DNA from: Dictyophora rubrovolvata
Taxonomy: Eukaryota; Basidiomycota; Agaricomycetes; Phallales; Phallaceae
DNA: 64,000 nt
Direction of reading: 5' to 3'
Assembly (NCBI GenBank): GCA_029959195.1
Contig: CP114123.1
Coordinates: 992,001-1,056,000 of the forward strand
Shown here: positions 37,389 through 64,000 of the stretch, in pieces
Layout: the number at the start of each line of letters is the position of its first letter
Numbering within the stretch: position 1 is the stretch's first letter
Made by a program: the position numbers and the translations under genes
The notes under the pieces: generated by a model
Databases searched by the model: none
Told to the model about the DNA's origin: nothing
What the model saw: only the letters and a program-made list of their open reading frames with translations

Positions 37389-38611
37389 TTATGATGTGGG
37401 TACAGCCTTGATACCGGCTTCAGCCAATTTGGCAACTAGTTCGTCTACGCTGGCAACCTAAGAGATATTTAAAATTCAGGGGTGCCAAAACGTAACCATT
37501 AGGAGCGCTACCTTTGCTCCTCCTGCTCGCTTAGGAGGTTCCTGATACTTCAACACCTCTAATTTAGGAGAAAGATCAACCCCAAGGTCTTGAGGAGACA
37601 GTTTCTCAATTGGTTTCTTCTTAGCCTTCATAATATTCGGTAGCGATGCATATCTCGGTTCTAGATACGGATAAATGTGACAGTGGGTCAGTTCGTATTC
37701 ATTGCGCGGAGTTCCGCGAAATAGTGAAAGAAAAGGAAGAAGAAAGCAATGTAATTTACCATTCAATCTGGGAAAAAAAAGGTTTATGAGATTTCATGAT
37801 GATGGTGTGATTGATTTACGTTGTATTGTACTCACCGCAAGTCAGTCGTTATGACAGTGGGCAAACGACACGCAACTTCCTCGGAGCCGCCATCGACTTC
37901 TCGAACAACATTGACGGTCTTCTGATCCTCAGATATTGTCACTTTGCTAGCATACGTCGCCTGCGGCCAATCCATCAACCCAGCCAACATCTGACCCGTC
38001 TGACCTGCATCATCATCTATAGCTTGTTTACCCATTATGATGAGATCAATAGGCTCCTTCTGCTTCTCCCTCTGAACCAGTGCTTTGAGGGCTTTTGCAA
38101 TACCTAATGGTTCGGGAGTCAACGATTCGGGTATTTCGATGTGGATGGCGGAGTCCGCGCCCATTGCGAGAGCGGTGCGTAGTGTTTCTGACGCTTTGGT
38201 TGGACCGATTGTTATTGCTGTAATGTTGGTGATAACATCTTTGTTTCGTTCGCGTAGTCGGACGGCTTCTTCCACCGCTGCAAGAGTATGTTTCAGTGAG
38301 GACAGTCTGAATTTAATGTATACGGAGAACGTGCCTATTTCATCGAATGGATTCTAAGATTTTTGAGAAAAAGGCGAGAATAACCATTTGAAACGTTGTT
38401 ACAGTCTGGAGTTAACCCACCATGGAGTGCTTGACATTAGTATCAATCCCAGTACCATTGGGATTCACCCGGATCTTAACCGCATAATCAACACATCTGT
38501 TGGAGATAAAATTTGCGGGATAAACATACAAAAACATGATACAAGATTTGAAAGGACCTGCCGTTTGACGGGAACCAGCACCCGCAGTAGGTTTACTGGT
38601 GTTGGACGCAT
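37389..38611 (-). CDS. electron transfer flavoprotein subunit beta (unit 1, intact)
   Basis: ETF-beta pairs with ETF-alpha in the mitochondrial matrix and passes electrons from acyl-CoA dehydrogenases to ETF-QO. The start [17 protein letters not shown] is followed by [22 protein letters not shown], and [14 protein letters not shown]. The main exon (38275-37832 and beyond) holds [33 protein letters not shown] (AMP/FAD-site region) and ADLPTV-like [14 protein letters not shown]. It then gives [18 protein letters not shown] (recognition-loop region) and ends [16 protein letters not shown]. Two introns seem to need GC-AG borders: the join KR|CVD (donor GCAGGT) and EI|AVEE (donor GCACGT). This is the only full-length copy of four. 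It is divergent from ZNG1 with 80 bp between start codons. Confidence 0.9.
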
Positions 38612-38691
38612 ACTACGACAGCGAGCGCCTCCGTAGGCAAGACCAGACGCCCGTTACGTGACGTCACAGCTCTTGCGACCTGCTTGCAGCT
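38612..38691. promoter_or_regulatory. 80-bp bidirectional promoter with CRE palindrome (unit 1)
   Basis: The whole spacer between the ETF-beta and ZNG1 start codons is 80 bp. It contains TTACGTGACGTCACAG, in which TGACGTCA (38659-38666) is a perfect CRE/ATF-type bZIP site overlapping an ACGTG core. The same block recurs in unit 2 (TGACGGCA, 48117-48124), unit 3 (TGACGTCA, 51497-51504) and unit 4 (TGATGTCA, 57705-57712). Confidence 0.7.
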
Positions 38692-61048: not shown

Positions 61049-61962
61049 GATATAGAGAAGATAAATGATATCGCGATTGGCCTTGGTGCTGTGGATGTGT
61101 GATCCTTACATGCAAAGAGCCCTTAAATACAGCTTGAGTCATGATAAAATTTTGTCAGTCATCGTGCACTTGAAGTCACTTGAGATTGCATTGAGTAATT
61201 AAAAGCGAGGTCTTCAATGGAGCGTGATGGTGACCAGATTGAAAGGAGTCCAAGACTTTAATGGTCGCAGCTCAATATGAATACTCGAGTCTTCTAATGA
61301 AAAGAATTTTGCCACCACCAGGTATGTGCATCGTATCGTCATAGTCAATCTCATAAAATGAAGCTCCACGCGGAATCATGCTTCGTAGGTACAATGAACG
61401 GTTGATATTATGTATGCTTGTCAACCTCGAGTCCCAATGGCAGTACACTTCGAAAACCAGACAGATGCTGATTTTTAAAGGATTGGGGCAAGAACGACGA
61501 GAAAATTAAAAGATGCTGGCTTGTCAGGTGCAGCCAACTATGGGGTTGGCCTTGTCACTGATCCAACGCACCTCATCATGATGGAACTTTGATCGAACGC
61601 AAATTAAACCATCCGATGTAAAATGAATATTGTTCGACCATATGACTCAAAGATTATATGAGAAGGAATACCCTGTCAACAAGAACGAGATGGCTTTCAT
61701 GAATCCACATTTCAAGTTACTAACAGCTTTGGCAGCCGGGGCCTTGGTCAATTTTCATAAACCCTTCACTCTTTGTATTCCATTTTTCGCAACTGAGCTC
61801 CTCAATACCGATGTCAACGAAACTGAGATTTTTTTGAAGAAGTGTGTTTGCAACAGTTTAATGAACCATCGTCAAGGAAATCCTCAACGAAAGTTCTGCA
61901 TACATTAGAATAACTCTAACTTAACATATCGGGTATGACAAAATTATCAGAACGCACTAAAC
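61049..61962. other. unit 4 spacer with unrecognised plus-strand relic
   Basis: About 61160-61910 is the longest copy of the relic also found in units 1 and 3. A frame at 61630-61908 reads YEKEYPVNKNEMAFMNPHF and TALAAGALVNFHKP. Upstream pieces are out of frame. I cannot name the parent gene. Confidence 0.4.
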
Positions 61963-64000
61963 CTAAAACTCCGACTCGCCAGACGACCCAGACACGGCAA
62001 GCAAAAACTGTTCAACAACAGATTTCCCGCGACGAAGGTTTATTAATGAAATGCGTTCATTCGCGAGATGAGCTTGATCCTACAAAATACAATAAAAAAT
62101 CCATCCATCCAACAAAAAAAGAAGGGGCAAACGCAAAACATCATCACTTACCGAACTCTGTCCCATAGGTAAATGCAACCCAGGACATCCAAATTCTTTC
62201 TCCAAAAACGGCACAGAAGGGATAGACTAAACATACAACAACCTCAGTATACCAAACATAAAAAACAACAACAACGCATCTTACCCCTCCTTCTCTAATC
62301 CACAAAGGCTTAACACCCCACTCTTCTTCCACCGCTCTCTCAAGAATCTTAAAATACCGACTTTCCCAAGTTACCCAACCACCAATCCGCCGTTCTATCA
62401 ATACTAACCTACAAGAAAAAATTTAGATTTTAAACATCAAATTTATCGAGGCCGTACTTTGAGAGTATTACTAGACCGAAGCTTTCCAAAACTCTCCTTC
62501 ATGTGCGTAACAAGCACACTCCCCACTGTCTCCAATTTTTGATCCGGTACAACTGGAACTGACACTTTTGCACGAACTCCAGCTGGTATAACAGTAGAAT
62601 CTATAATATCAACGAACAAAAATATTAACGGGTCTTTCTCGCAGATTTGAAAATATTGGTGGTACACGCACTTCCGGGTCCAGATGTCTCAAGACTACGC
62701 TCAAACTAAGCTCGCTCCATCGAGACGAAAGCAATTCAGCAGGTTTGTTTGTTGAATTGGATAAGAGAGCAAATAGTTCATTTTCAGCTTTTGTACGCTG
62801 ACGAACATGGTCGTCTAGAAAAGAATAAAAAATCAGAAAGTACTGTGGAAGATGGGGACGGGGACGTACAAAATCCGGGGATAAGCACTTTTCTATCCCC
62901 ATCAACAAGTCCAGCAAGAATTTTAACCCTAAAGAAAAACTAGATTAATAAACGCCCTATCTTACAAATATCAAAGAACATACACGTCGCACATCGGTTC
63001 ATCAACACTTCCACCTTCAACACCCGAATATAAATCAGGACCAGAATTGAACAAGTCAATCGTAGCATGAACAACGCCCCGCAATCCATACGTTATAAAG
63101 GGTGTATCTTCACCGATCCAATCCGAACTACTGCACTCCAATCAGATTCCAGTGCCTAACATGCAATTTGTCTTATCTAACCAACAACGCATCAATCTCT
63201 CCAATAGAATCCTACCTCAAGTCATCAACACCAACCCAATAATAATAAATTAAAAAACCTCCCACCTTATATTCTTTAACAACCTTCTCAAACCCCCCAC
63301 TCCCAGCCCTCCTTCTCCCCTTCAACTAAGGAAACAACATCACACCCTAACAAACGCGGCCTCAACAGCATATGCAACCGCCAAAATAGATCCTTTATTA
63401 TTGGACACACCACGTCCGTATAGATAGCCGTTTATCCCCGTTCATTCGAACGGGCACGTTTTCCATGATCTGCATGGACTTGATATTAACACCGTACTGC
63501 CTAATTTTAAATTTAGAAAAAAAAGGAAGATATGTTTTTTTTTTGGTTCGGTATGCACCCGTAAAAAAAAGTATATGCTGTTTTGGTTTATCGGATGCAG
63601 ATGTACCCAGTCCGAGTCCTTTAAACGTCGCTAAGACAAGCGGATTTGTCCCTTGTCCAGTCGCAATCTAAAAACGAAGTGAGTCACACTATTCCAATTT
63701 GAATATTTCTACCCCTTCCTACCATGTATCGGCGCCCAACTGAGTCAGCCTGCCTACAATCCTCCCGGTGTTGTTCACTGTTGCTTACCGAAGGAAGAGA
63801 GACAAACGACGAAAGCGATTTCACAAGTGGATCTAATAACGCAAGCATTTAATTAATTTTGCTTCGAGGTTTAGGTGAGGAAGTCGGTGTACCGTGCATA
63901 TATGTTCTGTCGGCATTAAGATATCCCGATGCGGTAAACACATTACTCATGGAATTATTAAATTTCCCAAATCTGTACCCAAGTCACTCGAATTTTACAC
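61963..64000 (-). pseudogene. DUG2: DUG2-like M20 peptidase part, damaged, cut by window edge (unit 4)
   Basis: The C-terminus is well kept: DQAHLANERISLINLRRGKS and VSGSSGESEF-stop, with VPAGVRAKVSVPVVPDQKLE and LVTHMKESFGKLRSSNTLKV before it. The SGVEGGSVDEPM segment is in frame here, unlike unit 1. However the metal-site motif HYDV of unit 1 reads QYGV with extra bases, and the EGEEE region is shifted, so this copy also looks dead. The WD40 half would lie right of 64000. Confidence 0.65.

What the first reader, a model, noticed from the sequence alone, without database searches (positions are those of the whole stretch)
37389..64000. Four-unit tandem array in which the parts of one module decay at different rates
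The order ETF-beta/ZNG1, DUF6533, DUG2-like repeats head to tail at least four times. ETF-beta and ZNG1 are intact only in unit 1; the DUF6533 gene is open in units 1, 3 and 4; every DUG2-like copy seen is broken. The unit joins share a GAGACGGAACCAAAATGGCG-like sequence after the DUG2 5' end. A housekeeping mitochondrial flavoprotein, a zinc GTPase and a glutathione peptidase being carried along as scrap suggests that selection acts on one passenger, the DUF6533 gene, or that the locus is simply unstable.
Basis: partly seen in the sequence, partly recalled or inferred. Interest (0 to 1): 0.85.

Follow-up and report, generated by a model that had tools for sequence, protein, structure and literature searches.

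The report
Duplicated membrane-gene block with truncated passengers
In a fungal genome a block carrying one membrane-protein gene has been copied in a row and along one chromosome; that gene stays readable in nearly every copy that has it, while its everyday neighbour genes were cut off or decayed in all but one copy each.

Summary
The array is real. It is part of at least 13 related places in a 28.2 Mb fungal genome, 11 of them on one contig. Copies mostly share 69-82% of aligned DNA, so this is not an assembly duplicate. 'Different decay rates' is mostly not decay. ETF-beta is cut at one point in five of five copies that keep that end, and ZNG1 at one point in six of six that keep that segment. 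They were born truncated, as was a further gene, RPAP3, at the right join. Only DUG2 truly decayed, and a full-length DUG2 lies about 6 kb past the window, in unit 5. So each everyday gene survives once: ETF-beta and ZNG1 at the left end, DUG2 at the right. The DUF6533 gene is undisrupted in its modelled exons in 10 of 11 places that carry it, apart from a stop two codons before the end in unit 4. Median dN/dS is 0.45, while introns of the same copies hold 6-14 frame-breaking indels each. Selection on DUF6533 is supported. Closest parallels are the yeast CUP1 array and primate core duplicons. New variant of a known kind.

The parts
37476..38537 (-). ETF-beta, the only complete copy found in the genome (unit 1)
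   Evidence: 3-exon model, Pfam ETF 116.9 bits; genome search
38692..40369 (+). ZNG1, the only complete copy found in the genome (unit 1)
   Evidence: 10-exon model, cobW 147.1 bits and CobW_C 30.9 bits; genome search
38112..39456 (.). Part A as seen in the other units: 5' parts of ETF-beta and ZNG1, ending at breakpoints shared between copies
40370..41993 (.). Spacer between ZNG1 and DUF6533, largely kept only in unit 1 (parts of it in unit 2 and in the C9 copy)
42191..43905 (-). DUF6533 gene of unit 1 (modelled exons, open)
   Evidence: Pfam DUF6533 36.5 bits, cut-off 24.1
44766..47948 (-). DUG2 copy of unit 1, broken
   Evidence: 18 frameshift indels, 4 stops against unit 5
47949..47968 (+).
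47975..51068 (+). Unit 2, a remnant: pieces of ETF-beta/ZNG1 5' parts, ZNG1 last exon and spacer, DUG2 upstream; no DUF6533, no DUG2 body
51127..52143 (.). Unit 3 part A (ETF-beta and ZNG1 fragments)
52437..54163 (-). DUF6533 gene of unit 3 (modelled exons, open)
54854..57232 (-). DUG2 copy of unit 3, broken and partly deleted
   Evidence: 16 frameshift indels, 5 stops
57281..59060 (.). Unit 4 part A (ETF-beta and ZNG1 fragments)
59359..61048 (-). DUF6533 gene of unit 4 (open; a TAG two codons before the usual end)
61658..64000 (-). DUG2 copy of unit 4, broken, runs on past the window end
   Evidence: 20 frameshift indels, 2 stops over the whole copy

Best explanation
A locus with the order ETF-beta, ZNG1, DUF6533, DUG2, RPAP3 was tandemly duplicated by joining a break inside RPAP3 exon 1 to a break inside ETF-beta (the shared join is shown; the joining mechanism is inferred). 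One daughter copy lost the 3' half of ZNG1 (shared break in six of six copies that keep the segment), and units of that type multiplied in tandem and were copied elsewhere on C7 and to C9 and C3. Each new unit carries two whole genes, DUF6533 and DUG2, and dead-on-arrival pieces of three. One DUG2 is enough, so all but the copy with its natural upstream neighbour decayed (decay shown, reason inferred). DUF6533, a membrane protein of a basidiomycete family, is held under purifying selection in nearly every copy because extra, diverging versions are useful (purifying selection shown; benefit inferred). Its predicted membrane part has twice the dN/dS of its C-terminal tail, as expected of a surface protein with a constant internal partner (rates shown; role inferred).
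For: Shared breakpoints. ETF-beta matches outside unit 1 stop by residue 120 of 265 in 7 of 7. DUG2: 7 of 7 other copies tested have 10-23 frameshift indels and 2-13 stops against unit 5. DUF6533: 9 of 10 copies have no frameshift against unit 5 and 10 of 10 no stop in the counted codons, while their introns and unmodelled stretches have 6-14 indels not divisible by three; median dN/dS 0.45 over 55 pairs; 1 stop against 24.1 expected in ten copies; tail 0.27 against membrane part 0.56. A second DUF6533 array with other neighbours.
Against: Two of 13 places, unit 2 and C3:2678k, kept neighbour pieces but no DUF6533 of this group. 860k has an extra base at exon H and lacks its splice acceptor, and unit 4 has an early stop two codons before the end. 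dN/dS intervals reach 0.98 for U3-U5 and 1.03 for U4-U5. 1181k holds a ZNG1 piece beyond the common cut in changed order, so the history was not a simple series. No expression data and no related genome to show the ancestral order.
Confidence: 0.75

Rival explanations
1. Neutral instability: the region duplicates often, nothing is selected, and the DUF6533 frames are open by chance or because the copies are young.
For: Dispersed, rearranged and partial copies. Single copies alone are weak evidence: P of so few stops is 0.04-0.31 per copy.
Against: Synonymous distances of 0.23-0.49 for most pairs; introns and DUG2 in the same units are broken many times; pooled stops 1 against 24.1, lowest simulation 9.
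Confidence: 0.08
2. Gene conversion from one working DUF6533 copy keeps the others open, without selection on each copy.
For: Units 4 and 5 are close (dS 0.11) and stretches of units 1 and 2 are 93% alike beside stretches at 73-74%.
Against: The other pairs have synonymous distances of 0.23 or more and tips of 0.11 or longer on a star-like tree.
Confidence: 0.05
3. The block is a mobile element, such as a Helitron, that captured gene pieces and spread.
For: Copies on three contigs in both directions; repeats in inverted orientation near 1203k, related to one near 930k.
Against: Outer ends differ between dispersed copies; after masking the unit, flanks share only scattered short repeats and no common end. 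No transposase search was made.
Confidence: 0.04
4. Assembly artefact from collapsed or repeated reads.
For: No read data to inspect.
Against: Copies differ in about 20-30% of aligned positions in most pairs and carry indels of their own.
Confidence: 0.01

Closest known systems
Saccharomyces cerevisiae CUP1 tandem array (PMC4232551, passages read)
   Same: Tandem units with a selected gene, a fragment of a flanking gene (RSC30) in each unit, the complete flanking gene at one end, and joins with 3 bp of homology or less.
   Different: CUP1 units are 1.2-2 kb; here units are about 6-10 kb and about 20-25% diverged, also dispersed, with fragments of three genes and a decayed fourth, and the working copies split between both ends.
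Primate core duplicons such as NPIP (PMC6920530, abstract and passages read)
   Same: Mosaic duplication blocks around a shared core, mostly on one chromosome, partly tandem and partly dispersed.
   Different: Here the core is under purifying selection on average (dN/dS 0.45), positive selection is not shown, two places lack the core, and copy-number variation is untested.
snb1, a DUF6533 gene of Coprinopsis cinerea (PMC10949477, passages and one section read)
   Same: Basidiomycete membrane protein with DUF6533; the paper predicts seven transmembrane helices and an intracellular C-terminus.
   Different: The paper gives 1-3 copies for most Agaricomycetes and 4-5 in Psathyrellaceae; here at least 144 DUF6533 matches (exon matches, not genes) in one genome. 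Orthology to snb1 was not tested.

Membership tests
DUF6533 (PF20151) | match over the curated cut-off | tested here: met
   unit 1 model 36.5 bits, cut-off 24.1; genome matches in units 3, 4, 5 and others
DUF6533 (PF20151) | seven transmembrane helices as reported for SNB1 | tested here: inconclusive
   hydropathy of a partial exon model shows several hydrophobic stretches only
CUP1-type tandem array | all units share one join between two flanking genes | tested here: met
   the ETF-beta side begins at 38112-38126 in five of five copies that keep it; joined sequences aligned
CUP1-type tandem array | complete copy of the cut gene only at the end of the array | tested here: met
   ETF-beta whole only in unit 1; RPAP3 continues only at unit 5 within the array
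CUP1-type tandem array | little homology at the breakpoints | tested here: inconclusive
   judged by eye on diverged joins
Core duplicon | one core shared by all duplication blocks | tested here: not met
   11 of 13 places carry DUF6533; unit 2 and C3:2678k do not
Core duplicon | duplicates generally confined to one chromosome, tandem and dispersed | tested here: met
   11 of 13 places on C7
Core duplicon | positive selection on the core gene (reported for at least half of the families) | tested here: inconclusive
   mean dN/dS below 1 in all exons tested; no site model run
Core duplicon | copy number varies in populations | not testable with these tools
   one genome only
Mobile element | constant termini in dispersed copies | tested here: not met
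   outer ends differ between copies; masked flanks share no common end

The most novel reading that the evidence does not exclude
A fungal counterpart of primate core duplicons: DUF6533 membrane-protein genes are the focal, selected core around which whatever lies next to them is duplicated along one chromosome, building a diversified receptor-like repertoire with variable membrane parts and a constant internal tail.
Probability: 0.3. Interest if true: 0.7.

Novelty: new variant of a known kind. Interest (0 to 1): 0.47.

Why it matters
It is a clean natural control: within the same duplicates, of similar age, one gene is preserved and its neighbours are not. That points to a large and almost unstudied basidiomycete membrane-protein family as the thing selection wants more of. 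It also shows how the places where duplication breaks fall can decide which unit keeps each essential gene, so that one locus ends up split between the two ends of an array.

Tried and rejected
Rejected: assembly artefact; mobile element with fixed ends; 'every DUG2 broken' (unit 5); 'ETF-beta and ZNG1 decayed' (shared breakpoints).

Limits and dropped rows: The 13 places are those with a match of about 2 kb or more to part B, or with pieces of parts A, C or D. Other rows (short or older DUF6533 matches, for example at C7:388-788k, C3:2.88 Mb and C11) were left out, and I fetched only some of those stretches, so 13 is a lower bound. A small piece of part A at C7:1082.5k was counted with the 1088k copy. 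In one search the first start chosen for exon E gave stops or a changed length in several copies; I then moved it to an AG that all 11 copies keep (seen). Exon H of 860k was read in a shifted frame, so its dN and dS are inflated; leave 860k out of the rates and the stop test. The stop test treats copies as independent, which units 4 and 5 are not. The unit 5 DUG2 model is a script prediction; a stretch before the HYD motif and the last exons look mis-spliced, so some counted frameshifts may lie in intron sequence, and gaps of 60 bases or more in a copy were skipped; for four of seven copies the alignment identity is only 57-73%. The binomial figure is not used, because matches are not independent genes. 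The passengers of the second array are not settled: homeodomain 19.7 bits (cut-off 22.9) and bZIP_2 22.1 bits (cut-off 22.3) both fall short. Structure prediction was not tried. No related fungal genome could be searched. Paper searches; that I saw no fungal core duplicon rests only.

Full report
WHERE IT IS. The window is C7:992001-1056000 of a 28.24 Mb genome in 11 contigs. Gene content and the DUF6533 family, called basidiomycete-specific in PMC10949477, point to a basidiomycete; the species is not known to me. 'U5' means unit 5; '930k' means the copy at that position of C7.

THE OBSERVATION. A self comparison shows direct repeats from 38.1 kb to the window end. Whole-genome searches with unit 1 and a comparison of fetched stretches give at least 13 related places: units 1-5 (unit 5 is C7:1057792-1065568, outside the window), C7:682k, 860k, 930k, 1088k, 1181k and 1203k, C9:361-365k and C3:2678k. 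Identity over aligned DNA is mostly 69-82%; pairs with the short C3 copy or with unit 2 range from 56 to 81%. Such divergence excludes an assembly duplicate.

ANATOMY. With unit 1 as reference the repeat has four parts: A (38112-39456, the 5' parts of ETF-beta and ZNG1, head to head), B (from 41994, the DUF6533 gene), C (DUG2) and D (upstream of DUG2, ending in the start of the next gene). Unit 1 alone has the whole stretch between A and B, with the 3' half of ZNG1; unit 2 keeps part of it, C9 part of the spacer, and 1181k a ZNG1 piece beyond the cut in changed order. Part A starts at 38112-38126 in the five copies that keep that end (U3, U4, U5, 930k, C3). It ends at 39446-39456, with B following 88-103 bases later, in the six copies that keep that segment (U3, U4, U5, 1088k, 1181k, 930k). 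The first point lies in the ETF-beta coding sequence, the second in that of ZNG1.

THE JOIN. In unit 5 the region upstream of DUG2 runs into a gene with TPR repeats (67.7 bits) and an RPAP3_C domain (45.3 bits, cut-off 23), followed by a gene with a CobW/HypB/UreG domain (106.5 bits) that I call UreG by eye. In the joins between units, and at 930k and C3, the sequence leaves this path within RPAP3 exon 1 and goes on in ETF-beta. The 682k copy instead goes on into RPAP3, to about 0.8 kb past the usual join (83% identity over the last 563 aligned bases). By eye the joins show at most short shared sequence, which fits end joining or a replication error; that is inference.

THE EVERYDAY GENES. An ETF-beta protein search gives 10 matches: three are exons of unit 1, and the seven others, in five copies, all stop by residue 120 of 265. 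A ZNG1 search gives 15 matches: seven in unit 1, which alone covers the gene. Of the eight others only unit 2 (last exon, residues 271-342, 97%) and 1181k (165-222) go past residue 138. The ETF profile also finds two adjacent matches on C5, presumably ETF-alpha (not tested). DUG2, named from WD40 repeats plus an M20 peptidase domain (recalled), is full-length in unit 5 as a 14-exon model with M20 65.5 bits and WD40 63 bits. Against its first 13 exons the other copies have these frameshift indels and stops: U4 20 and 2, U3 16 and 5, U1 18 and 4, 682k 18 and 13, 930k 23 and 13, C9 13 and 13, 1088k 10 and 7. Some of these may fall in intron sequence of an imperfect model, and the last four alignments are poor (57-73% identity).

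So the working copies are split: ETF-beta and ZNG1 at the left end, DUG2 at the right. This follows from the breakpoints. Only the leftmost unit can hold a whole ETF-beta, and only the rightmost keeps the natural neighbour of DUG2. That this neighbour decided which DUG2 survived is inference.

THE DUF6533 GENE. Aligning the 11 places that carry it gives seven exons, 815 bases in unit 5. Six donors are GT in 11 of 11 copies. Acceptors are AG in 11 of 11, except for exon H, where 860k lacks it and 930k has a gap. Exon lengths differ by multiples of three only, except exon H of 860k. Small exons between these seven are unresolved. Against unit 5, ten copies show no frameshift in nine and one in 860k, and no stop in the counted codons, while introns and unmodelled stretches carry 6-14 indels not divisible by three. 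Unit 4 has a TAG two codons before the usual end. Placing each copy's own substitutions at random gives 24.1 expected stops in ten copies (860k left out) against 1 observed; the lowest of 2000 simulations was 9, though single copies give P of 0.04-0.31. Median pairwise dN/dS is 0.45 over 55 pairs; bootstrap intervals lie below 1 in five of six pairs of tandem units, barely so for U3-U5 (0.98), and reach 1.03 for U4-U5. The C-terminal tail has dN/dS 0.27 and the part from exon C to exon J 0.56; the tail was lower in 60 of 60 bootstraps. Synonymous distances are 0.23-0.49, except for U4-U5 (0.11) and the 860k pairs, which a misread exon inflates. The tree is star-like with tips of 0.11-0.12 for seven copies, 0.20 and 0.23 for 860k and 930k, and a younger pair U4-U5. 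Conversion is therefore not what keeps most copies open.

A WIDER PATTERN. DUF6533 gives at least 144 matches in the genome, 49 of them on C7, which holds 8.6% of the bases; these are exon matches, not independent genes. A second tandem array at C7:405-435k repeats DUF6533 genes of a related branch together with other flanking sequence, in which homeodomain and bZIP matches fall just short of Pfam's cut-offs. A further 1.6 kb segment recurs at four places on C7 within about 1.3 kb of DUF6533 genes, plus one 41-base match. So the duplicated neighbourhood differs while a DUF6533 gene recurs. Against this stand unit 2 and C3:2678k, which kept neighbour pieces without it.

WHAT IT WORKS LIKE. The anatomy matches the yeast CUP1 array: a selected gene, a fragment of a flanking gene in each unit, the whole flanking gene at one end, joins with almost no homology (PMC4232551, passages read). 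The chromosome-wide pattern resembles primate core duplicons (PMC6920530, abstract and passages read), but positive selection was not shown here and two places lack the core. The one functional paper found on a DUF6533 gene is on snb1 of Coprinopsis cinerea, required for fruiting body patterning by its title and predicted to have seven membrane helices (PMC10949477, one section and passages read; searches). Its authors leave receptor, channel or transporter open. Whether the present copies act likewise is unknown.

VERDICT. A real and rather old burst of segmental duplication in which the DUF6533 gene is the preserved part. The striking 'different decay' is mainly the effect of where the duplication breaks fell. 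New variant of a known kind. The bolder reading, a fungal core duplicon that builds a receptor-like repertoire, is not excluded.

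Noticed in passing
C7:405001-435000 (L029-L031): Second tandem array of DUF6533 genes with other flanking sequence, including homeodomain-like and bZIP-like reading frames just below Pfam's cut-offs.
   Followed up: partly
C7:1183229-1184855 (L015:7229-8855): A 1.6 kb segment that recurs at C7:656k, 669k and 674k beside other DUF6533 genes, with a 41-base match at 642.6k.
   Followed up: partly
window 40072-40983 and 48582-49527: Units 1 and 2 are 93% alike here but only 73-74% alike just before, an abrupt change that suggests conversion or a younger partial copy.
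   Followed up: no
L010 (C7:1066001-1076000), about C7:1067.8-1069.5k: A UreG-like gene with a CobW/HypB/UreG domain lies next to RPAP3, right of the array.
   Followed up: no
C7:1199000-1203300 (L017) and about C7:936.1-936.4k (L022): Repeats of about 220-415 bases, partly inverted, 80-91% alike, that look like a transposable element near two dispersed copies.
   Followed up: no
C3:2677987-2679616 (L027): A small dispersed copy holding the DUG2-to-ETF-beta join but no DUF6533 of this group; a more distant DUF6533 gene (57%) lies 4 kb away.
   Followed up: partly
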